Shown here one piece after another: positions 33,241 to 62,975 of a stretch of 64,000 bases of DNA. The DNA is from Sarcomyxa edulis. Its lineage: Eukaryota; Basidiomycota; Agaricomycetes; Agaricales; Mycenaceae. The notes beneath the pieces were generated by a model that was given only the letters and a program-made list of their open reading frames with translations, had not been told where the DNA came from and made no database searches. The DNA is taken from assembly GCA_009761415.1 (NCBI GenBank), contig QUOL01000006.1:1736001-1800000 (forward strand), read 5' to 3'. The number at the start of each line of letters is the position of its first letter. Position 1 is the stretch's first letter. The position numbers were made by a program, and so were the translations under genes.

Positions 33241-34861
33241 TCATTGCTCATCGAACAAAACTTGTGTATATGGGAAGGGTTTCAAAAGCGGTTCAATGAG
33301 CACCGCTTGCACGCCAAGATCTGACACCCCGTACATCTCTAAAGAAACATTGACCTCATCAGTATAGCTGCATAAGCCGCAGAGCTCACAAGGACGACTC
33401 ACCATTAGGAACGACGGCAAATTATGGTTACAATGGTTGCACCACCCACCCCCATGTCTATATCTCCAAGTATGCACTTGGCAGTCATGGTTAATACGAA
33501 GTGCAGCGATACGCTCGTGTACCCGGCCCTCGTATACCAAGGGAGCGGCAACGGCAGCTCGTGCACCGAACTCGTTCACGACACGCTCTCTAGCAGTGAC
33601 AATCAAGCGAGCTTCATCCCACTGGGGGCAAGGACACGTCTTCCAAGGAGCAGCGCAGAGGTAGCAAAACTGGGTCCTGCACGTGCACGTCATATGGAAG
33701 CATCCTTGCGCCAACTCGATGATGACCTTGCATCCCGGGCATCTCTGCCAACCCTCGTCTTGAGCTAATTTCTGCACCTCGAGTAATGCGGTGTCCTCTC
33801 CGCACGGCTTGCCTGGATGGGCGACACTCTTACACCTCGTGCACACCCTCGTCCAACATTCAACGCAATTCACTTCGTCACCGTTATTTTCGGACGATCC
33901 AAGGAACATGGAGCAGAGGTCGCTGGGACAATAGACACGATGAGGTGCTGGTGTACTAAACTCTCGGGATTTTTCTTGGAAGCGTCGTGCGAGGCTGAAT
34001 CCGACGCGATACAAGATATCAGCGACAATAAAGTTCTGGTTACAGCAGCGTAGAGGAAAAAGCGACTCGTCTCTGGTGCACGTTTCGACAAGGTCCGTGA
34101 GGCATGTGCGACAGTAATAATGAGTGCACGGTGCGCGAAAAGCTGACAATGGGCCAACATTTTCCATACAGCTGATACAGGTAGATCTGATTTCGACAAA
34201 CAATTCAGACGGCCCCGAAATTGGGTCCAAAGGTTGCTTACCGAGTTTTGTCCCGATGCTTAGTTTGAGAGGAGGAGACCTCAATGGTCACAAGTTGATC
34301 ATCATCGTCGGAGTCAACAACAGTTTCATCTGAGTTTAAGGTAGCAGTCTCGTCAGCTTGAAAATCAACAAGACTGTAGAAATAACAGTCAGTCAATCAG
34401 CATTGAGCAAGACGAGATTGTAAACACGCTCACGGCGGCTCAAGAGAAAGCAAAGGATCCTCCAGCGATCTCTGTGATCTAGAAGGTGGCGGCAGAGCCA
34501 AGCCACGAGACAGTGCAATAGCAGCTTGGTGATCATCATGTGCACCTTGCTCTACAATCGCGATAACATCGAGGAAATCACTGTCAGTGCGAAGGGCGTT
34601 GTGGAGGCTCTGTGCCAATCGATAGTCCTCGATAAGCCTGCAATAGTCTGATGAGTATTCAGCTTGAAGCTGAAGCGCCAGAGCTTCATCCGATGGTAGT
34701 GCGTCAGCCCTGCCTTTCCCTTTACTAGAGCCTTCGACAGACTCAATATCTTCAAGGGTAAGACGAGCAATGAGGAGCGCCGTCTCGACGTCTATATCAT
34801 CATTTGCGCCGTGGTTGAAAGCGCGAACCTGGGTTGCGAGAGCGGTAGACGTAGAAGCCAT
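33241..34861 (-). CDS. RBR-type E3 ubiquitin ligase (RING1-IBR-RING2)
   Basis: RBR ligases take ubiquitin from an E2 on RING1, pass it to a catalytic cysteine in RING2 and then to the substrate. Three exons on the minus strand (34861-34434, 34373-34242, 34186-33241) give about 501 residues. The N-terminal 180 residues are acidic and low complexity, with two EALALQLQ/AIALSRGL-like helices that resemble ubiquitin-interacting motifs. RING1 reads CISCMENV...CTHYYCRTCL; IBR has CVECWTRVCTRC and HPGKPC; RING2 reads CPGCKVIIELAQGCFHMTC-TC followed by QFCYLC. The catalytic cysteine is the first C of the HMTC-TC segment. A C-terminal extension carries more Cys/His (WCNHCNHNLP, CELCGLCSY). This is the usual basidiomycete RBR layout, and it appears intact. 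Confidence 0.9.
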
Positions 34862-36644: not shown

Positions 36645-37068
36645 TCCAACACGCGACTATCTGATGTTGTAAATACCGGGCTGGAGCCCAACGCTATTGT
36701 CAGCATGTGCTCTGTAGTCAAATCTGACTCGGGAAAAAAGAAAGTGCCAGAATTGCTGAACCTGTCACCGATGTGCTCGGACGTGAAGAGGCCACATATG
36801 TAAGTGCCTTCCGCTGCGCATGCGTCCATAGAATCTTCTCCGAGTCTGAGCTTATAGCATGTACGTCTTTCCTATTGCTCGTAATCACTTCTTCGATCGA
36901 TCTTAGCCTGATCATCAGTAGGTTTACACGAGGACAGATACAAGGCCCACATGCCTTCAAATCAAAAACAAGCAATATTCGCTCCTTGCCTAAATTGCTC
37001 ACAGATTACAGGAATCTCGTTAGCGGATACTACCTCTCTCTCACAATTGCCGTCATTCACCATCCACC
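36645..37068. other. Intergenic
   Basis: 3' flank of the membrane protein and promoter of the hydrolase gene. Nothing else is seen. Confidence 0.35.
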
Positions 37069-38035
37069 ATGACAGAATCAAGCGGTTTCATCGATTTCAC
37101 CTTCGGGAACGAGACATTCCAAACCTGGTACAAAGTCGTCGGCAATCTCGAATCATCCTCTCGGCCCCTCATCGTCCTCCACGGCGGTCCAGGCATGGCA
37201 CACAACTACCTGCACCCCCACATCGATCTCCACGTATCCTACAACATCCCCATCATATTCTACGACCAGATCGGTATAGGCCGTTCCACTCATCTACGTG
37301 ATAAACCCGAAAGTTTTTGGACTATGGACTTCTTCGTGGCAGAGCTACATAACGTCCTTACACACCTGAGCGTCTCTTCAAATTTTGACCTGTTAGGCCA
37401 CTCGTGGGGTGGGATGCTAGCTTTAGCTTATGCTGCCGAGCGTAAACCCCAAGGTCTCAAATGCATCGTATTGGCGAGTGCCCCAGCTTCCCTGGAGCTT
37501 TGGGAGGTCGGAACGAATTCGCTGCTTGATGCTCTTCCGAGTGGACTGGGCGAGGTTCTGAGAAAGCACGAACGAGAGGGGACTACTGATGACGATGAGT
37601 ACCAGAAAGGCATGCTCGTGTTCTATAAAAGGCACGGCTGCAAAGTCGATCCTTGGCCAAAGGAGGTTTTAGATTCTGTTGCGTCGACGGAAGAGGATCC
37701 GACTGTCTACCATACAATGTACGCGAATTTCTGCGAGTCATCTTCATCTTTGTGCTCACTTGCCTGTTCGTTGGTTCTTCAGGCTCGGGCCTTCCGAATT
37801 CTGCATCACTGGAACTCTCAAAACCTGGTCGATCATTGATAAACTGTCCGATATCGATTACCCTACCCTCGTTATTAACTCTATCGACGATTCAGCTCAG
37901 GACGCGTGTGTTTTACCGTTCTTCCATAAATTGCCGCGCGTGAAGTGGGTTCAGTTCTCTCGCAGTAGTCATATGCCGTTTTGGGAGGAAAGAGAGCGGT
38001 ATATCAAAGTCGTGGGCGATTTCTTGACTTTGTGA
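37069..38035 (+). CDS. Alpha/beta hydrolase, proline iminopeptidase type
   Basis: Enzymes of this group (peptidase family S33) remove N-terminal proline from small peptides; many fungal members accept other amides or lactams. Two exons (37069-37718 and 37783-38035) give 300 residues, normal for the family. The oxyanion-hole motif LIVLHGGPGMAHNYL, the DQIGIGRS segment and the nucleophile elbow LLGHSWGGMLALAYA are clear. The acid should be the Asp in VINSIDDSAQDAC and the base the His in SRSSHMPFWEER, so the triad is complete. There is no signal peptide, so it should be cytosolic. The exon junction splits an ATG codon before LGPSEFCITGTLK. Confidence 0.9.
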
Positions 38036-50096: not shown

Positions 50097-50738
50097 ATGT
50101 CGTCCATCTCATCATTTTTCTCGTCGTTCTTCGACACGGTCCATGCAGATACCTCTGCTGAGTCTGAACAGACTCACGACGAGCCCGCTGAAGAGGAGAC
50201 GGAGGCTGAGGAAGCCCCAGCAGAAGAGGAGGAAGAGGAGGAACCAGAGGACGTGCGTTATCACCCTTTACCAGTCGATTCTACCCGTAGTTGAACATGT
50301 ATCCCTTTATGAAGCCAAATCCTGCAATCAGGGAAGACTGCAAAAACTCAGCGAAATGTGCCGCTCTAGCGAAGCATTTCGAACACTGTAACGAGAAGGT
50401 TGAGAGCGGTCAAGGGTTCAAGGGCGAGGATTGCGTCGAGGAACTGTACGTGACATCTCTCTTTGTTTAGTCTATCCAGCTCATTTTTATTTTAGATGTA
50501 CGTTGATCTTTGATTGTGTCTACTATGTCTGGTGTTCATTGATATATCGTGACTTCTCATCACCCTCAGTCCAGTAAGTCTCTTGTTCTCTTGTATCTGG
50601 GGCGCCGCTCTAACGGTCTATCTTCTAGCCTGATGCACTGTGTAGATGTATGTTTTTGTCTCTCAAAGTACTTCACAGGCTTGACCGTCTTTTCACCAGG
50701 CCTGCGCCGCCCCAAAACTGTTCTCCAAGCTGCGCTAG
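50097..50738 (+). CDS. QCR6: Cytochrome bc1 complex subunit 6 (acidic hinge protein) with 2-base and 4-base exons
   Basis: QCR6 is a small acidic subunit of mitochondrial complex III on the intermembrane side, near cytochrome c1. Six exons fit: 50097-50252, 50315-50445, 50496-50497, 50570-50573, 50629-50647 and 50700-50738, giving 116 residues. The N terminus is Ser/Phe-rich with a run of Glu (about residues 24-50), then NPAIREDCKNSAKCAALAKH, KGEDCVEELFHLMHCVDACA and a final APKLFSKLR. The cysteine pairs of the hinge fold are present. CT + AT + TCCA + C spells Leu-Phe-His exactly where the family has ELFH; without the two tiny exons the frame is lost. Both are flanked by strong sites (TTTTAG/GTACGT and CCTCAG/GTAAGT). 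The other exons are secure; the microexons are inferred. Confidence 0.85.
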
Positions 50739-52144: not shown

Positions 52145-55100
52145 TTACATCTCATCTCTACACTGTGTCCAGACCGCGCCGTGGACAAACTGTCCAAAGT
52201 CAAGCTTCACAGACTGGTCTGCCAAGACAAACGTATTCCTGGGCCACCATAATCCCACTCGATTCCAAGGAGGAACCCAAAAGAGCAAGTCCGAGTTTGA
52301 ATCTAGTATCCAACCGTTCACGATCGGTGACCCATCCTCGAACTCACCAAGTTGCGTGGCGACTACGGGTTTATTGTCAGAGAGATCTGATACGTCCCAT
52401 ACACGGATCGTTTTGTCTTCGGATACTGAGACCAAAGACGTTCCACTGCGAGAGCAAGCAACGGAAAGGACAGCGTCAGTATGTCCTCTCAGAGGGCTTA
52501 GCACTGGACTGCATGTCTGAATATTCCAGACTAAAATTGTCTGATCGTCGGAGCCCGAGACCATATATTTTCCGTTCGGGAAGATAGACACAGACCTGAC
52601 TGGTCCTGTATGGCCATCGAAGACCACAGAAATGCCGGATGTTATTGTCCATACGCGAATGGTGGCATCATAAGATGCAGATGCAATGTGTTGGCAGTCC
52701 GAGGAGAATGCGACGGAAAGGACTACATCGGTGTGTCCATGGAATATTCTGATCTCGGGTGACTTTACATCCAGTTGAAGGTCCCACAGGCGGACAGTCA
52801 TGTCTTCAGAACCTGATATTAACTGTTTGTCATCGCTAGAGATTCCAAGAGAAGTGATGGCGGATGTATGTCCTCGGTAGACTGCAGCTTCTGTCTGTGA
52901 GTCAGCGTGCCAGATCCGGATTGTCTCATCGGACGAGCCGGAAATGATAAGTCTGCCATCGGATGAAAAGACAACGGACCTAATTGCTTGCTTATGACCT
53001 TTGAAAGGCTCAGCTATGGGATCGCCGGTACGAGCGTCCCATATCTGTATTGTCTTGTCATATGAGCCCGACACGATATATTTCCCGTCTGGTGAAAAGG
53101 CAACACACGTCACAAAGTCGCGATGCCTGCTGATAGTCACCTCGTCGGTACGTGTATCCCAGACTCTGACTGTACGGTCGCGAGAGCCTGAGACAATGCG
53201 ATTTCCATCTGGCGAAGAATCAACCGACAGGATTGCTCTGACATGGCCTTGGAATGACTGAGACGTCAACATCAATTGTTTGACATCCCATACACGGACT
53301 GTTTTGTCCTGAGAACCAGATGCGACGCAGGTTCCGTTCGGTGAGAACGCAACACAAGAAACCCAGTCCGTGTGACCGTAAAGCGGCCCAGAAACGAGAT
53401 CGCCAGACTCCGCACTCCACACTCTGACAGTATGGTCTACCAAACCCACGACCAATAACTTCTTATCAGGCGAGAAGGTGGCTGACTCTAATTCCGAGAC
53501 ATCTTTTCTGGAGATATGTTTTAGAGGTAGGACAATACTTTCCCCAGAAACAAGATCCCAAATACGGATCGAGTAATCGATAGATATTGAGAGAATCTGC
53601 TGGTCATTCTCGGAAAACGCCACAGCAAGGACACTTTTCTCGTGTCCAGAAAAGATTCTAGGAACTTTGTCGTTTGTTTTGATATCCCACAATCGAATAG
53701 TGGAGTCACTTGAGCCAGACAAGAGATTATTCGTATCCGAAGAAAACGCGACGGACATGACCCAGCTACGGTGACCCTGTAAAGGGGCCCCAACAGCATC
53801 GCCCGTCTCTGCATTCCAAATCCTGACCATCCTATCAGACGAACCCGATGCGATGAGTTTCCCATTGATGGATATTGCGAGGGATGTGATGGAGCCCAAA
53901 TGCCCGAGAAGTGGTGCCAATACAGGTTTTCCGGTATACGCATGCCAAACTCTGATGGTCCCGTCGTTGGATCCAGATACAAGTCGAGTGCCGTCTGGCG
54001 AGAATACGAGAGACTTGACACCACGAGCGGATCCATGTAATGCTTCTGCGATTACGTGGCCATCTTCAGCGTCCCAGATTATGATTGTGTTGTCCTGGGA
54101 TCCCGAGGCGATTTGTTTACCAGATGGAGAGAATGCAACACAGTCAACAGAGTCAATATGGTGCTCCAAAACACTCAAAATCGGAGGCCAGTTATCGGCT
54201 GCTCCTATCTGCAGCTTCAGCATCTTGGAAAACTTGGGAAGAAAGGTTTTTCTGATTGTCGACTCCCTCGGGGAAAATGGGAGTGCCGACAAGTATATGT
54301 GCGGAGTACTTTGCGAAATCGGGTTTCTGAAGACTGAGATGAATTTTGCGATGTCGTTCGCCAACGCTACAACGCTCATGTCGGACTAAAAGTGGACAGC
54401 GTTGAGAAGATAAGCTCGGAACGCGAAAAAGTTACAACTCACAGATGCCCACTCTCCCAAAGCCAATGCTGCTTTCGACGCGATACTAAGCGCTCGTAGC
54501 AGACTCAACACCTCTATCCAGTACAGGAATCCCTCGTACAAAAATTCGCGGACTTGATCGAGCAGCCCAGCTTCAAATTCTGTAACGCGGACATGATCCA
54601 TCCAAAAACGACACGAATACGACAGAGAAGAAGAAATATGATGATTGATGCGAGAAGGCAAGTCTGGGATATCCTCATTCCGGAGGTGTGATGTCTCCAA
54701 CTGACAGATATTGAATTGAAGTTCTCTCAAAACGCGTAACGAGGCCAGAGCGATGGAACGGTTTTGAAGAGAGCCGTCGGCGTAAAAGCCTTTACTTCGG
54801 GCTTCATCGACAAGGAAGTCACGAAATGACGAGTGAAGAGGACGGACTGGGTATTCCTCTTCGGAAACACCACTTAACAAAGACCCGAGAGGTCGAATGA
54901 TGGATTCTACGACCTCGCGAGTATAGCGCCCATCGCAGAAATCACAAAGAGCGCGGACAGACAGGGGCTCTTTAGCTTCCAAGAGTGTGCCCAATATGTC
55001 TTTGAAACGAGTCATAGGAATAGCATCCTCGATATCGAAGATTCTCTCGAGAATACTAGAGTAGAGAGAGTCGAGGTTGGACGAAGATGAAAGAATTATG

Positions 55101-57410
55101 GACAATCGTTCGGTAGGTGTCCAACCGCGTTTCACCGGACCTTTGATAAACCTGCATGCAGTAAATGCCCATTGAAAGAGACCCTCGGATTGCAAGACCA
55201 ACTTCAAGCACAACTCGCGGTCCAACGAAGTAATAGTTGATAGCTCGGACTGTACAAAGACAGTAAGATCAGCGTTCGTGGAGGTTCTATCAATGGCATC
55301 CATGGATTTGTGAAACACACGAGGGTTATGACGAAGGGCAGTCTGTATATCTTCTTCTGGGCGGGACGTGACAATGAAACGAAAGTTGGGCGGCAGGTCG
55401 GAAGTTCCATCAGCGAGAACCGATAGAACTTCTTCCCGAGATGCCTCATCGCCGCTTTCATCTAACGCGTCAATAACGATAACGATAGGCCCCATTATCG
55501 ACAGATTCGCAGAAGGCTTTACCAAGAATCCATCAAACTGAGATTGGATGGAGGTGGTGGTACGCAATGAACGTTTCGCCTTGATAGAGTCCCATAGAGA
55601 AGACTTCCACTTAGTATCAAGATCCGCCAGGTCCACGGCGATCGTACTGAAAAGATGATGGGGCTGCAGCTCCGTTTGACGAGAAATATCGAAAGCGAAG
55701 AACGATCCAAGACGGTTCTGATCATCGAATAACCGCGCGATAGTATGGGCTATAGCGGATTTTCCGGAGCCGGCGAGGCCACTAAGCCAGAGTAATCTCG
55801 TGGTGTCTTCAGGATCAGGGTCCGTTATCCACTTTACGAGATCGTCGATGATACCTTGACGTGTTTGGGGGAGGCATTCCTTTCCGGGATTTCGTCCAGC
55901 GCCATTCGCATAGGCCATATCGTGCAGATCAACTTTGGTAACTATCAGTATAACGTTAGTGATGGTATTGAGTATATTAACGGAGACCCTTGCTCACCCA
56001 GAGCGTCAATGGTATTTTGGATGTTCAGGGTCACAAATCGGACTTGTATGACATTGATTTCCGTTTCGACGGCAGCTTGAGTTTGAAAAGCAACTCGCAT
56101 TTCGTTGAAGCTGGTTTTGAACTCTGCAATTTTATCATCAGCCTCCGAGAGTAGATGCACAAAGGATTTCTTCCCTGTGGAGCACCGTTATTAGTTGATG
56201 TCATGAAGCAATAAAATCTGCGTACAAAAGTTCTTTTCTTTGGCATAATGATAGATAAAGTATGCGCATTCGGTTGTCTGGCGTATCATCCGCATGAGCA
56301 ACTCTCGATGGAATTCTATTTTCTTGAGGGGGTTGGCTTCGTGCACGAATGCAAAAGCATCGTTCATCGCTGAAACCAAATCGTCCACATTCTTGTCGCG
56401 CGCCTTCTGTGCGAGAATAATCTGCAAATAAATTTAGAATTGGTGTTTCGCTCACGATGGTTCGTGCGCTCACCTTGTGCGCGGCGGAAATTGCTCCCCA
56501 TGCAATCTGAGCATAAGGGTGTATCTAAGAATCCAAGGAAGCCAGTCAGTACTTAATTGAAAGATATCTGGATATTCATCGTAGTACCTGCGCAAGTTTA
56601 TCGATCATTTGACTAAACAGCTCGACTTTAGAGAGGAGCGGTTCCCATGAATCGGCTGCGTCGTCACTCCCGTCTATCACGTTGTTCACCACCTCGATAA
56701 GTTCGTCTACTTGGTGTAATTCTGCAGGAGCTGGGACAAGATGTATTTCTGCATTAGCGTCCATAACGGCTGCGCCCAATTGATGCTCCTCCGCGAGGTT
56801 CAGTGATTTGGAAGATTTGATAGTGAACTCGAGGATGCCATCACTATTGCCTGAAATTGGTCTTCTTAGCGTAAGAACTGAATCTACGTAGAATCTCAGG
56901 ACGACTTTTTCATCATTAGGAATGAAATGGCAATTGCTCACCGTTGGTACACGACGAGAGGAGAGATTCAATATTTTCCTCTACTCCTCCCGCATGGTAA
57001 TCCTGATGGGTGATATGCCGAGCGAAGACATCTAATTTCAAGATGGAATCTGTGTGTGCATCGCTAAGGGAAGGAAATCAAGACTAAGTACAGGGGATGC
57101 AATTTGCGCCCATCAGGACCCACAAGTAGAAAGTTTCCCTCCACACCGGCGCGCCTGTCCTCGGAGACACGATTGTCTTTCTCATCTCTCCATCAACCAC
57201 GAGTCTCACGTAGAACTTTCCGGGTCGTTTTCGCCATAATGGAGTATCACTGGCAGGGAGCTGATGCCCTTTGATGTCTATGAAAACCAATCAGCATCGT
57301 CGGGGTCACGATATCAAGAAGGTGCTATTCCTGCCTGTGATCGTCAACAAGATCGCAATCTTGGCCTGGGGGGAGCTTGAATGGGGAGAAATGGGACAAG
57401 CTGGTGGCAT
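52145..57410 (-). CDS. STAND (NLR-like) receptor: C2 - helical - NACHT - 14 WD40 repeats
   Basis: Fungal NACHT-WD40 proteins are candidate non-self recognition receptors that oligomerise on ligand binding. The minus-strand gene starts at 57410 (MPPACPISPHSSS); intron 1 begins with GC at 57334. Order of domains: C2-like (GKFYVRLVVDGEMRKT, then PVWRETFYL); helical region with IHPYAQIAWGAISAAHK and FREL-type amphipathic helices; NACHT with Walker A LSGLAGSGKSAIA and Walker B PIVIVIDALDESGDE (about 55460-55800); winged-helix-like GRYTREVVESIIRPLGSLLS; then fourteen WD40 repeats (about 54200-52350), exactly two seven-blade propellers. The C-terminal cap reads LLFWVPPWNRVGLWWPRN. Total about 1,600 residues. 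A single intron separates NACHT from the WD40 exon. The frame is open throughout, so it is probably functional. Confidence 0.87.
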
Positions 57411-58478: not shown

Positions 58479-61400
58479 ATGGCCACCATTCCCGAGTCGG
58501 CTACAAGGTGAGCATTATACTATCACCTTTGGTCACACATTCATATCTCTTGTTCGTGGTCCACCTCATACCAGGAAAATCAAAATATCAGGTCAGATCA
58601 TCTGTCAGATCTGGATGAGTGCCTCTGACCGGCGTTTATTGCAATTGGGAATTGTTACATAGATATCAGATGCGACCCTCTCCCAAAAGTGGGCTTACTG
58701 TCGCGTCGTAAGTTCTACGTGAAGGTTATTGTCGATGAAGTGGTAAGAAAAACCGGATTGTCGGAGAGTAAAGCACGAGCCTGGCATTGGGAGGAGACAT
58801 TTCATTTGTAAGTTTATCTTTTACCCCACGCTCAGACAGTGCTCACGAATAACCCCTAACTTTTTCATAGCGATATTCAAGGCTCTCAGACCTTTAAACT
58901 TCACCTCTATGCACAACATAGTTTTCATTCTCGAGACGACTATATCGGAGGCATAGAAGGCGACGTCAAAAACTATCTTGACACCGACAAACACGGTTCG
59001 TTTATCCACTCTATGCTCCTATGACTCGTGATCGGTTGAGAGAGAGAAACGCTAGCTATGAGCCTCTCATTAACACTCGACGCCCCGGACCTAAAGGCCC
59101 CAGGCTGCACTGTTACATTCAATATCGTCGAACTCGCCGTCTTTGACAATGCAGCTACGCGCCAGGCGGGAGATTTACGCAAATATGCGGAGGAAGAGAT
59201 TGACAGGATGCAAGTCCTACCGTCGTCATTTGATGGCCCTCTGGGAGCAGTAGATGATATGGACTCTGCTCTTGATCAGGCCAGCTCCAGCACTGAATTA
59301 TTAGGATCAGTGTTAGAGAAAGTCGAGCTGTTCACTCAGCTCGTAGATGGATTTGCAGAGGTTAGTGGCGTAAACGTAGAGTTTGAGGTATCACTAAGTC
59401 CTGTTTGATTCCTGCACAGATACATCCGTATGCCAAGTTAGCATGGAGCATCTGTTCGGCCATTCCGAAGGTCGGCGAGATAGCTGTTCTTGTTCCATAT
59501 CTTGTTGCGCAAATGTACTAATGATCATTGCAGGCCGTGCTCACTCAAGTCAATCGTGATAAAGAAATCATCGGCCTATTGGATACCATAGATGAGGCGT
59601 TCGCATTTGTACGTGAAGCGAGACCTCTCGAAAAAGTCAAATTCCACGAACAAATCCTAGCAAGGATGGCACAACAGACGGTTGAATGTGCATACTTTGT
59701 ATGTGCGTACGCCAAGGACAAGACGTTCGGTGAGCATTCATGACGATCTCACAGTCACAACGTGTTCTCATTTACTCCAGGGATACGCATCTTGAAAGGC
59801 CTGACATCGAATGCGGACAGTAGGATTGCAGAGTTTAAGGCGAAATTCGCCGAACTCACCACACGCCTGGAGAGCCGTGTCGTCATCCAAACCAGCATCG
59901 ATATCATACAAATCAAATTTGCTAATGAGAGTATCGAGAGGACTCTCAACTATCTGGGCAAGTGCTCTCAGATATGACTGACAACGTCTCTCTAACTCTA
60001 TGTGCAGCCGCGAATGCTGATTTCACCGATATGCACTATGCCAGCGCTTCCGGATATCGTCTCGAACGAACCTGCCTTCCTAAAACACGAGAAAGGATCA
60101 TCGATGAGATAATCGACTGGGTAAATCTATCAGAGTTTGATGACCCTACTCGATTACTCTGGTTGAACGGTCTCGCCGGAACCGGAAAGTCTGCAATTGC
60201 ACACACGCTCGCCCACATATTCGATGGACAAAAGCGTCTGGGGTCTTTCTTTGGGTTTGATGTTGCCAATAAAGTCAATTGTCGGCCAGACTACCTATTT
60301 AGCACCATTGCCGTCAACCTTACTGCTGTCGACTCGGCATGGCGCAACTCGTTATGGAGCGTCGTCAAAGATAACCCATCTCTTCGCTCTACTACTTCGA
60401 TCGAATTGCAGTTCAATCGATTCCTATTGGAACCAGCGACTTCCCAAGGTCTTGACTTTATCGGACCTATTGTCATTATCATCGATGCACTGGATGAGAG
60501 TGGAGACGAATCTTCACGGACTGGTATCCTTTCTATACTCGCCTCTGGAATACAGAACCTTCCTCACAATTTCCGCTTCATTCTCGTCTCTCGTCCCGAA
60601 GTTGATATTCAGGATGCTCTGCAAGGAAGGACACACGTACTCTGTAAAACCATGGCCGCAATTGATGAGAAATCTACCGAGCAAGATATCTCAGCCCTCA
60701 TTTCTTCTCAATTGTCTACCATCAATATTCGGCGTAAGAAGTGGGGGGATCGAGAGGTCGAGTTACTGGTCCAAAAGTCAGAAGGGCTTTTCCAATGGGC
60801 CTCTACTGCATGTCAATTCATCAAAGGCATAGGAACCAAAGCTGGTTCTACACCAACAGAGCGCCTCTACGTCATACTTTCTTCCGTATCGAATCTCGAT
60901 TCGTTGTATCTGGAGATCTTGAAGCGAACCTTTGACACCGATAACCCGACTTCTATGGATCGTTTCCGTGGAATATTGGGACTTTTGTTTACAGTACGAG
61001 AACCTCTGTCCGTCGCATCACTCCAGAAACTGTGCAGTGACGAGTACGATTCTGATGTTGTTGCCTCTGTGCTAGAGCCTCTAGGGTCTTTGCTGAGCGG
61101 TGTCGGGGAAGAATCAGTTCCAGTTCGACCCCTTCACACTTCCTTTTACGACTTCCTTACGGACTCAGGCCGTAGCAAATCCTTCCACGTCGATATCTCT
61201 TTACAAAACTGTACACTTGCTGTTGCGTCCTTGCGGGTCATGCGGGAGGAGCTCCGATTCAACATTTGCGGGTTAGAATCCTCTTACCTCGAAAATTACG
61301 AAGTTCCCGGGTTAGATACTCGAATCGCAAGATTCATACCTCCTCATTTATCTTATTCGTGTCGTTTCTGGACCGACCATCTCCAGAATACAGATTTCCA

Positions 61401-62975
61401 AGACGAAATCTTCGAAGAGGTCCGCGACTTCCTATACAGATACTTCCTGTACTGGTTGGAAGTTCTGAGCTTCTTGAGGTCATCCAAGATGGCATCTGAC
61501 TCGCTGTCTACTATAGCGGAATGGTGCATGGTGAGATTCATATTCAGATACCATACAGAGAGTGCTGATTGTAGCGTTTATAGTATGACGATGAAGTCGT
61601 AGCGTTTACCAATGATGCCATTCATTTCGTTAAATGTTTTGATGCTCCCATAGCCGCCAGTGTTCCCCATATATACATATCGGCACTCCCATTTGCACCC
61701 GCAGAATCGCTTGTTGCTAAACATTATCTACCCTCGTTCCCGAATACTCTATCTGTTGTGAACGGACGACAGACCCGCTGGGAGGACGTCCAAGATGTAC
61801 AACATAGAGCTGCAGTACGATCTATCGCCTTCTCGCCGGATGGAAACCGGGTGGTCTCTGGATCCTTTGACTGCACAGTTCTGGTATGGGATTCCGAAAC
61901 CGGTGAAGTAGTAACTGGTCCGTTCATTGGCCATGAAGGAGAGGTCAATGCTGTGTCATTCTCGCCAGACGGAAAGCACATCGCTTCGGGATCCAGTGAT
62001 TCGACAATCTTGGTATGGGATTGTGAGAGCCCTGACCTAGTACCACGACGGTTCGTGGGACACGCCGATAGAGTCAATTCTGTCACCTTTTCTCCTGATG
62101 GGAAAACCGTCGTCTCTGCCTCCGATGATTGCACCATTCGGCTTTGGAATTTGGGCGAATCATCATCCATCGGTGTTTCGAAAATATTTGAAGGACACAG
62201 TGGTCCAGTTCATGCCGTTGCATTCTCTCCAGACGGGGGGCAAATTGTCTCCGGCTCTCAGGATTACACAGTACGGCTTTGGAATCTGGATTCCAATCAT
62301 GCCGTTTCGCATGTCAGTATCACGGATCCGGATAACCAATTTTCAGAGGTAAACGCTGTTGCTTTCTCCTCGGATGGTAAAAAAATTGCCTCAGGATCGG
62401 ATCATGGAATAATTCGCGTCTGGGATGTAGAAACGAAAGAAGAGCTTACGTGGAGTCCGATACGCATGTGCACAAGTTCTGACAAAAGCATCAACTGGGT
62501 CTGGTCTGTCTCATTCTCCTCGGATGGGATGTTTATCGCCTCTGGATCCAGCGATGCAACCGTCCGCCTCTGGGATTCAGAGAGTGGTAGATCCGTCGCA
62601 GTCCCATTCTACGGCCATGCCGATTGGGTGATGTCCGTGGTTTTCTCTCCAGATGGTAGACGAGTCGCTTCCAGCTCTACTGACGGTACCATTCGTGTAT
62701 GGAATATCGGCGACTTAGTGGATTCGTATACCTCGAAGCTTCCCATCCAAAACGCTCCAAATATATATACAGTACCTGGATTTGAAGACGATGCCACGCT
62801 AGAAGACGGCTGGATACGCTGGTACGACGGGAAGCTGTTTTGGGTCCCGACTTCAAATAGGCGTGGTTTACGTTGGCCTCGAAGTTTAGCTACCATGGGA
62901 GTAACGATGACTAGCGTAGATTTCAGTTCATTCTCATACGGCTTTCATTGGCAAAAGTGTAGATCTCCACCTTAG
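58479..62975 (+). CDS. STAND (NLR-like) receptor: C2 - helical - NACHT - 7 WD40 repeats
   Basis: This is the divergent paralogue of the receptor at 52145-57410, with the same layout. The start ATG at 58479 (MATIPESATRKIKIS) precedes a 17-base exon (58575-58591) and exon 58663-58807 with RRKFYVKVIVDEVVRKTG of the C2-like domain. The helical part has IHPYAKLAWSICSAIPK and AFAFVREARPLEKVKFHEQ. Intron 59958-60007 has a GC donor. NACHT: Walker A LNGLAGTGKSAIA, Walker B GPIVIIIDALDESGDE, then PVRPLHTSFYDFL. After an intron near 61531 come seven WD40 repeats (about 61800-62720), one propeller, and the conserved cap LFWVPTSNRRGLRWPR. About 1,300 residues. The two proteins match from the first exon to the last residue but have diverged strongly. 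Confidence 0.87.

What the first reader, a model, noticed from the sequence alone, without database searches (positions are those of the whole stretch)
50440..50650. QCR6 appears to need a 2-base exon followed by a 4-base exon
Seen: after GAA-CT (ending 50445) the conserved protein resumes only at C-CTG-ATG-CAC (50629). Between them lie TTTTAG-AT-GTACGT and CCTCAG-TCCA-GTAAGT. CT+AT+TCCA+C spells Leu-Phe-His, giving EELFHLMHC, the expected family sequence, with introns of 50, 72 and 55 bases, all within the normal range here. Known: exons this short cannot be defined by usual exon recognition and must rely on intron definition. No other GT-AG combination I found restores the frame. A 2-base exon would be among the shortest described.
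Basis: partly seen in the sequence, partly recalled or inferred. Interest (0 to 1): 0.88.

Follow-up and report, generated by a model that had tools for sequence, protein, structure and literature searches.

The report
Two-base exon conserved across mushrooms
In this fungal genome the only QCR6 gene found, for a small part of the respiratory chain, is predicted to be spliced through two extremely small exons in a row (2 bases, then 4 bases), and tell-tale errors in the QCR6 protein records of many mushrooms suggest that the whole group likely shares this arrangement.

Summary
The core observation holds. In the window's QCR6 gene (Pfam UCR_hinge; only copy found), AT (50496-50497) and TCCA (50570-50573) lie between good GT-AG sites and give EELFHLMHC, with introns of 50, 72 and 55 nt. 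One sub-claim is wrong: 61 of 389 GT-AG chains keep the frame (including a 183-nt skip and a 78-nt exon), but only this one gives the family's [FY]H. Chance is remote: 10 of 9581 genomic segments allow any [FY]H chain, none with sites as good. New here: among 217 listed homologues the junction is widely misread. Of 171 named ones 36 carry [FY]H, 85 lack exactly those two residues and 50 are garbled; of 46 environment-only ones 40 carry it and 6 break off or go astray there. Most errors fit a shared 2+4 layout: Met becomes Ile in gapped forms, Phe-Cys tails spell a 2-nt exon running into a GTNNGT donor, V-H or D-H tails spell AG|TCCA or AG|AYCA. So the pair is most likely old and shared by the class Agaricomycetes. 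No RNA and no relative's DNA could be examined. Mechanism (inferred): intron definition with stepwise splicing.

The parts
50097..50252 (+). QCR6 coding exon 1 (start codon, acidic N-terminal region)
   Evidence: translation; UCR_hinge match of the spliced protein; ab initio model has the same start and end
50253..50314 (+). intron 1, 62 nt, GTGCGT...AAG
   Evidence: joins PED to PNPAIRE as in the family; same in the ab initio model; its best branch-like site is very weak
50315..50445 (+). coding exon 2, ends ...GAG GAA CT (phase 2)
50446..50495 (+). intron 2, 50 nt, GTACGT...TTTTAG, branch-like CTCAT at 50480
   Evidence: donor and acceptor each at percentile 93.8 of 97 reference introns; motif
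50496..50497 (+). microexon of 2 nt, AT: third base of Leu96 codon and first base of Phe97 codon
   Evidence: only chain of 389 that gives [FY]H; ab initio model
50498..50569 (+). intron 3, 72 nt, GTACGT...CCTCAG; a multiple of 3 without a stop in this frame
50570..50573 (+). microexon of 4 nt, TCCA: rest of Phe97 codon and first two bases of His98 codon
50574..50628 (+). intron 4, 55 nt, GTAAGT...TTCTAG, branch-like CTAAC at 50610
50629..50647 (+). coding exon 5, C CTG ATG CAC TGT GTA GAT
50648..50699 (+). intron 5, 52 nt, GTATGT...CACCAG
50700..50738 (+). coding exon 6 with stop codon, ACAAPKLFSKLR (first codon GCC)

Best explanation
The window's QCR6 gene most likely contains two consecutive constitutive microexons, AT (2 nt) and TCCA (4 nt), which together would supply the conserved Phe-His of the hinge protein and which the class Agaricomycetes probably inherited as a 2+4 pair. 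Shown: the sites, their strength, that only this chain gives the family sequence, and the pattern of errors in homologue records. Inferred: each of the three short introns (50, 72, 55 nt) is recognised as a unit (intron definition), and they are removed one after another, because two bases leave no room for factors on both sides at once. Removing intron 2 glues AT to exon 2 and makes an ordinary exon end (...CTAT|GTACGT) from which intron 3 is spliced, which in turn glues on TCCA (...TTCCA|GTAAGT) for intron 4. The opposite order works equally well on paper. Skipping one microexon breaks the frame; skipping both gives an in-frame protein without Phe-His.
For: Only chain of 389 with [FY]H. Sites: GTACGT is the commonest donor in 97 reference introns (11) and occurs at introns 2 and 3; against all GT/AG of the window the inner sites lie at percentiles 99.6 (acceptor of intron 2), 99.6 (donor of intron 3), 88.0 (acceptor of intron 3) and 98.1 (donor of intron 4); a 183-nt intron would be at the 99th percentile (1 of 103 is that long or longer). 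Chance tests. Protein-blind gene finder picks both exons. UCR_hinge: 102 bits with FH, 87.8 without, 82.8 with the 78-nt exon. Only copy found. Homologues (217 proteins listed): gapped forms have an NNC-encodable residue before the next block in 85 of 85 (51 of 76 in [FY]H forms); Met 25 and Ile 1 in [FY]H forms against Met 0 and Ile 18 in gapped ones (p 1.8e-11), as AT|G read as AT|C predicts; 11 of 12 proteins reading Phe-Cys after EE fit a 2-nt exon followed by a GTNNGT donor; the 10 proteins ending V-H (5) or D-H (5) before the block all fit NNA-G|TC-CAC or NNA-G|AY-CAC, the D-H ones all from Trametes, Ganoderma or Dichomitus.
Against: No RNA from this species was examined. No relative's DNA was reachable, so the class-wide claim rests on reading misannotated proteins backwards. 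61 chains keep the frame, and by weakest site the 183-nt skip and the 78-nt exon score slightly better (0.90 against 0.65). 36 of 171 named homologues carry [FY]H, so in some species the pair may be absent, or annotators had transcripts. 8 of 56 garbled homologues fit none of the rules, and three others with x-H before the block are not V or D (P0085 L-H, P0002 I-H, P0026 C-H). The homologue lists are the best 120 of 510, 298 and 174 hits, and the second and third queries were themselves a gapped and a garbled record, so the proportions are not those of all fungi. One written prediction failed: that all new environment-only proteins would carry [FY]H (3 of 9 did, 6 break off or go astray). The rules are lenient: many residues have NNA, NNG or NNC codons. 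The acceptors of introns 3 and 4 are middling (32nd and 37th percentile).
Confidence: 0.9

Rival explanations
1. Both tiny exons are illusory: one 183-nt intron (50446-50628) is removed and the protein reads EELLMHC, two residues short.
For: In frame; uses two good sites; 85 of 217 homologue records show this kind of gap.
Against: All 40 environment-only homologues that reach the next block carry [FY]H, and records of one species disagree (Lentinula edodes P0007 with FH, P0059 and P0104 without). The intron would be at the 99th length percentile. It shortens a C-x13-C spacing that is the same in this protein and in the five chains printed, and costs 14 bits in Pfam.
Confidence: 0.04
2. A normal 78-nt exon (50496-50573): the 72-nt stretch is not an intron, and the protein is 24 residues longer, with V-H before LMHC.
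For: Open frame, 72 = 3 x 24; with the 183-nt skip it has the best weakest site of the 61 chains.
Against: Loses Phe and splits the domain match (82.8 against 102 bits, two stretches); GTACGT at 50498 is left unused; none of the 40 complete environment-only homologues has an insert here.
Confidence: 0.02
3. No 2-nt exon: exon 2 ends two bases later (...CTGT) and a non-canonical AC-AG intron of 122 nt leads straight to TCCA. The protein is identical.
For: Spells CTG TTC CAC, the same protein: the donor's own GT happens to stand in for the missing two bases.
Against: Needs an AC donor beside a top-scoring GTACGT and ignores AG|AT|GTACGT. In relatives it cannot give the F-Y-H or I-F-H records (TT+GT is Leu, AT+GT is Met), nor the Phe-Cys tails.
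Confidence: 0.03
4. Pseudogene, or a sequencing or assembly error in this stretch.
For: Nothing specific beyond the odd structure.
Against: Only QCR6 copy found in 35.6 Mb, rest of the frame intact, and the same junction is disturbed in records from many other genomes.
Confidence: 0.01

Closest known systems
1-nt exon of Fusarium CYP621A (PMC12940212; abstract, introduction and discussion read)
   Same: Fungal exon of one or two bases that completes a conserved motif, found because exon phases did not join, candidate identical in all 24 genes of its discussion; SRA reads support it in two species (abstract).
   Different: One exon of 1 nt in one P450 subfamily of one genus; here two consecutive microexons (2 and 4 nt) in a respiratory-chain gene, with signs of sharing across a fungal class, and no reads yet.
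1-nt exons of plant APC11 and VPS55 (PMC4674806: discussion and passages read; PMC8831610: passages read)
   Same: Tiny constitutive exon in a core gene, old and generally misannotated; stepwise intron removal proposed for APC11.
   Different: Plants, 1 nt, single microexon. PMC8831610 also mentions two adjacent microexons in rice (5 and 12 nt), longer than here.
4-bp microexon of human MPC1 (PMC9929638: abstract and one results section read)
   Same: 4-nt constitutive exon in a mitochondrial gene; minigenes shortened to 2, 1 and even 0 bp were still spliced.
   Different: Human, natural length 4 nt, with an exon-definition region in the neighbouring intron; the 2-bp form was artificial.
Recursive splicing at ratchet points or RS-exons (PMC5126111, PMC6224609, PMC8605326: search listing with start of abstract only)
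   Same: A donor is regenerated at the junction and used for the next step.
   Different: Described there mainly for long introns; here two coding bases stay in and the introns are 50-72 nt.

Membership tests
UCR_hinge / QCR6 (Pfam PF02320) | full-length match above the curated cut-off | tested here: met
   102 bits against 27.2, profile 1-65 of 65
UCR_hinge / QCR6 (Pfam PF02320) | [FY]-H before the M-H block and C-x13-C spacing as in relatives | tested here: met
   only with the 2+4 exons among GT-AG chains; spacing seen in the alignments
microexon | exon of 30 nt or less between functional-looking splice sites | tested here: met
   sites scored; use in RNA not seen
microexon | inclusion in mature mRNA | not testable with these tools
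   no RNA data of the species at hand
U2-type spliceosomal introns | GT-AG ends, typical length, branch-like motif | tested here: met
   lengths of introns 2-4 at percentiles 3.9, 83.5 and 29.1 of 103 reference introns
recursive splice site | AG directly followed by GT (zero-length exon) | tested here: not met
   two bases lie between AG and GT; it may still work like one
class-wide conserved microexon pair | same two boundaries in relatives' DNA | tested here: inconclusive
   inferred from protein records only; scans of genome contigs and viral contigs found no relative

The most novel reading that the evidence does not exclude
A 2-nt exon followed by a 4-nt exon sits in QCR6 throughout the Agaricomycetes, from Cantharellales to Agaricales: the smallest tandem microexon pair known, kept since the origin of the class in a core respiratory gene, hidden because gene predictors delete or garble exactly these six bases, and a built-in splicing checkpoint, since losing either exon alone destroys the reading frame.
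Probability: 0.6. Interest if true: 0.87.

Novelty: new variant of a known kind. Interest (0 to 1): 0.74.

Why it matters
Exons of 1-2 nt have rarely been reported and test how the spliceosome tells exon from intron. A 2+4 pair that is probably shared by a whole fungal class would be a natural, deep data set for the order and rules of stepwise splicing. It also means that many public QCR6 records of mushrooms are wrong at the same six bases: of 171 named homologues listed in three searches, 85 lack exactly [FY]-H and 50 are garbled there. Databases and gene predictors inherit that error. The footprints used here (Met-to-Ile swap, Phe-Cys tails, V-H/D-H tails) may help to find other hidden microexons from protein records alone.

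Tried and rejected
Gene finder, first version: the intron count ran away (3764 introns in 26 genes); discarded and replaced, which is still permissive. First homologue count covered 120 proteins; the recount used a pattern that mislabelled many Polyporales and was dropped; one search corrected it for 172 proteins; one search's pattern left 34 of 217 unclassed ('no second block'), so the final figures are those, with a looser anchor, for all 217. The split into named and environment-only (sources jgi, lgn or ena alone) was typed by hand from the tables. That complete environment-only proteins come from transcripts is inferred from mostly short contigs and an unbroken frame, not shown. In one search my script added a stop sign to the end of each record, so where a record simply ends I took the end for a stop codon.

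Literature (10 searches, CC-licensed PMC papers only): none joins QCR6 with microexon; the 2-nt-exon phrases searched gave two unrelated hits; some searches gave the precedents cited, and I saw nothing on this gene in their listings, which for the larger searches show only the top 10-20. PMC12940212 states that exons of 2-5 bp are on record in Arabidopsis, Drosophila and human, so size alone is not new.

Considered and rejected: GC-AG donors (none of the form GC[AG]NGT in 50421-50640); a single 6-nt exon giving [FY]H (no such chain). The V/D rule was written down before the last homologue search; two new cases turned up (P0173 D-H, P0182 V-H) and both fit, but for P0182 (Rhizoctonia) I had seen no intact record, so only P0173 is a clean test. 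The same note's prediction about environment-only proteins failed. The Phe-Cys rule was seen only after the last search and is post hoc.

Full report
What is in the sequence. The window is G000:C37:1736001-1800000 of a 35.6-Mb assembly. The gene at 50097-50738 (+) encodes the hinge subunit of complex III, QCR6 (UCR_hinge, 102 bits), and is the only copy found. Its best-scoring named relatives are mushrooms such as Lentinula and Collybia (class Agaricomycetes recalled). The spliced CDS has six coding exons of 156, 131, 2, 4, 19 and 39 nt and reads MSSISS...GEDCVEELFHLMHCVDACAAPKLFSKLR*. Exons 3 and 4 are AT (50496-50497) and TCCA (50570-50573).

Is the chain forced? One of the 389 gives EE[LMIF][FY]HLMHC, and it is the reported one. 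Its summed site score (13.74) is the highest of the 25 chains printed there, partly because it has three introns; by weakest site the 183-nt skip and the 78-nt exon are slightly ahead (0.90 against 0.65).

Are the sites good? A gene finder trained by itself on 264 kb of this genome yielded 103 strictly chosen introns: median 58 nt, 95th percentile 122 nt, one of 183 nt or longer. GTACGT, used by introns 2 and 3, is the commonest donor (11 of 97 introns of up to 110 nt). Blind to proteins, the same gene finder placed both tiny exons in QCR6, but it ended intron 4 too late and overran the stop. It predicted 32 exons of 6 nt or less among 619 internal ones, so it is permissive; AT has the highest summed site score of the 32, narrowly (9.88 against 9.85 for the next).

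Chance. Keeping the outer ends, 109 of 40000 dinucleotide shuffles allow any chain spelling [FY]H; none reaches the summed score of the four inner sites and 5 reach their weakest score. Of 9581 GT...AG stretches of 153-213 nt from the genome, 10 allow any such chain and none reaches either score.

The wider pattern. Three homologue searches listed 217 distinct proteins, the best 120 of 510, 298 and 174 hits; the second query was a gapped record and the third a garbled one, which favours such records. Of 171 with a named source, 36 carry [FY]H, 85 lack exactly two residues and 50 are garbled. Of 46 known only from environmental sources, 40 carry [FY]H and 6 break off or go astray at the junction (with the source labels as). 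An earlier count on 172 proteins gave 37 of 37 against 33 of 135 (Fisher p 1.7e-18); the third search, made after it, added the 6 environmental exceptions. Records of one species disagree: Lentinula edodes has MFHM in P0007 and a gap in P0059 and P0104. So here annotation varies, not the protein.

The errors report the hidden DNA. (a) If exon 2 ends after the second base of the EEx codon and coding resumes at a C, gapped forms must show a residue with an NNC codon: 85 of 85 do, against 51 of 76 [FY]H forms. Met before [FY]H (25 of 76) must turn into Ile: gapped forms have 18 Ile and no Met, [FY]H forms 1 Ile (p 1.8e-11). (b) If a 2-nt exon NT is followed by a GT donor, reading on must give Cys (T|GT), then an NNG codon and a TNN codon from GTNNGT. 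Phe-Cys cannot come from reading on at the first donor, because TT|GT gives Leu. Of 12 proteins with Phe-Cys after EE, 10 fit by reading on and one (P0156) as a 6-nt exon ending at GTGC|GT; P0165 does not fit. In four of the ten (P0174, P0175, P0177, P0197) the record ends after the third residue and I took that for a stop codon; in the other six the next residue has a TNN codon. In a single species such a tail could also mean that exon 2 is two bases longer, but then the gapped form TT|C would lack a GT donor; Lentinus tigrinus shows both forms (P0110 gapped, P0176 Phe-Cys-Glu-Tyr, two strains). (c) Six records end right after EEL (P0183, P0186, P0210, P0211 environmental; P0188, P0196 named), as a GTRA donor read as G TRA would give, though a contig end is not excluded for each. 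(d) If the 4-nt exon is preceded by AG, reading from the intron must end NNA-GTC-CAC (V-H) where the residue is Phe, and NNA-GAY-CAC (D-H) where it is Tyr. Of 13 garbled proteins with x-H before the block, 5 are V-H (Tricholoma, two Suillus, Laccaria, Rhizoctonia), 5 are D-H (three Trametes, Ganoderma, Dichomitus) and 3 are neither (P0085 L-H, P0002 I-H, P0026 C-H; the last fits rule (b) with GTCAGT). The residue before V or D has an NNA codon in 10 of 10. Intact records seen read LFHL in Suillus (P0006) and FYH in Trametes, Cerioporus and Lenzites (P0024, P0122, P0124). For Tricholoma, Laccaria and Rhizoctonia no intact record of the genus was seen. (e) Dichomitus squalens shows both sides: P0085 reads on at the first donor (L-Y-V), P0173 ends D-H. 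Eight of 56 garbled proteins fit no rule (P0002, P0051, P0165, P0180, P0194, P0213, P0216, P0217).

Range. Orders were looked up for Suillus (Boletales), Trametes (Polyporales), Laccaria (Agaricales), Ceratobasidium (Cantharellales) and Russula (Russulales). The gapped form occurs in Suillus luteus P0075, Trametes versicolor P0086, Ceratobasidium P0141 and Russula emetica P0159, and in Agaricales for example in Amanita thiersii P0047 (order recalled); Laccaria P0063 is garbled. Tremella, Dioszegia, Saitozyma and Kwoniella (Tremellomycetes, recalled) carry FH without a gap (P0098, P0115, P0119, P0169). This suggests that the outer boundaries are about as old as the class; the inner 2+4 split is supported by rule (b) or (d) for Agaricales, Boletales, Polyporales and Rhizoctonia.

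Mechanism. Intron definition fits introns of 50-72 nt. Two bases leave no room for factors on both flanking sites, so stepwise removal is the likely route, as proposed for the 1-nt exon of Arabidopsis (PMC4674806, discussion read). Human MPC1 minigenes with 4-, 2-, 1- or 0-bp exons were still spliced (PMC9929638, one results section read), so size is no bar there. Single skipping breaks the frame in this gene: without AT it runs on in another frame, without TCCA it soon meets a stop; double skipping stays in frame. A role as checkpoint is speculation.

Limits. No transcript of this species and no DNA of relatives was read. The class-wide claim is an inference from protein records.

Noticed in passing
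52148-55993 (-) and 59929-62972 (+): Two NACHT/NPHP3_N plus WD40-repeat open frames in opposite orientation near QCR6, NLR-like proteins; one has 13 and the other 7 significant WD40 stretches.
   Followed up: partly
50498-50569: The 72-nt intron is a multiple of 3 and stop-free in frame, so its retention would give a longer open protein; a gene predictor may well prefer that 78-nt exon.
   Followed up: yes
50446 and 50498: Introns 2 and 3 begin with the same GTACGT; chance (commonest donor here) or a trace of how the introns arose.
   Followed up: no
homologue P0002 (Lentinula raphanica): Reads EEMIHMMHC: right length, but Ile in place of Phe; fits none of the misreading rules.
   Followed up: no
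L007:5512 (-) and window 31293 (+), 8068 (+): Other tiny exons with fairly strong sites in the permissive gene predictions (5, 6 and 6 nt); not checked against proteins.
   Followed up: no
33244-34287 (-): IBR-domain open frame (half RING finger).
   Followed up: no
37024-37836 (+): Alpha/beta hydrolase open frame.
   Followed up: no
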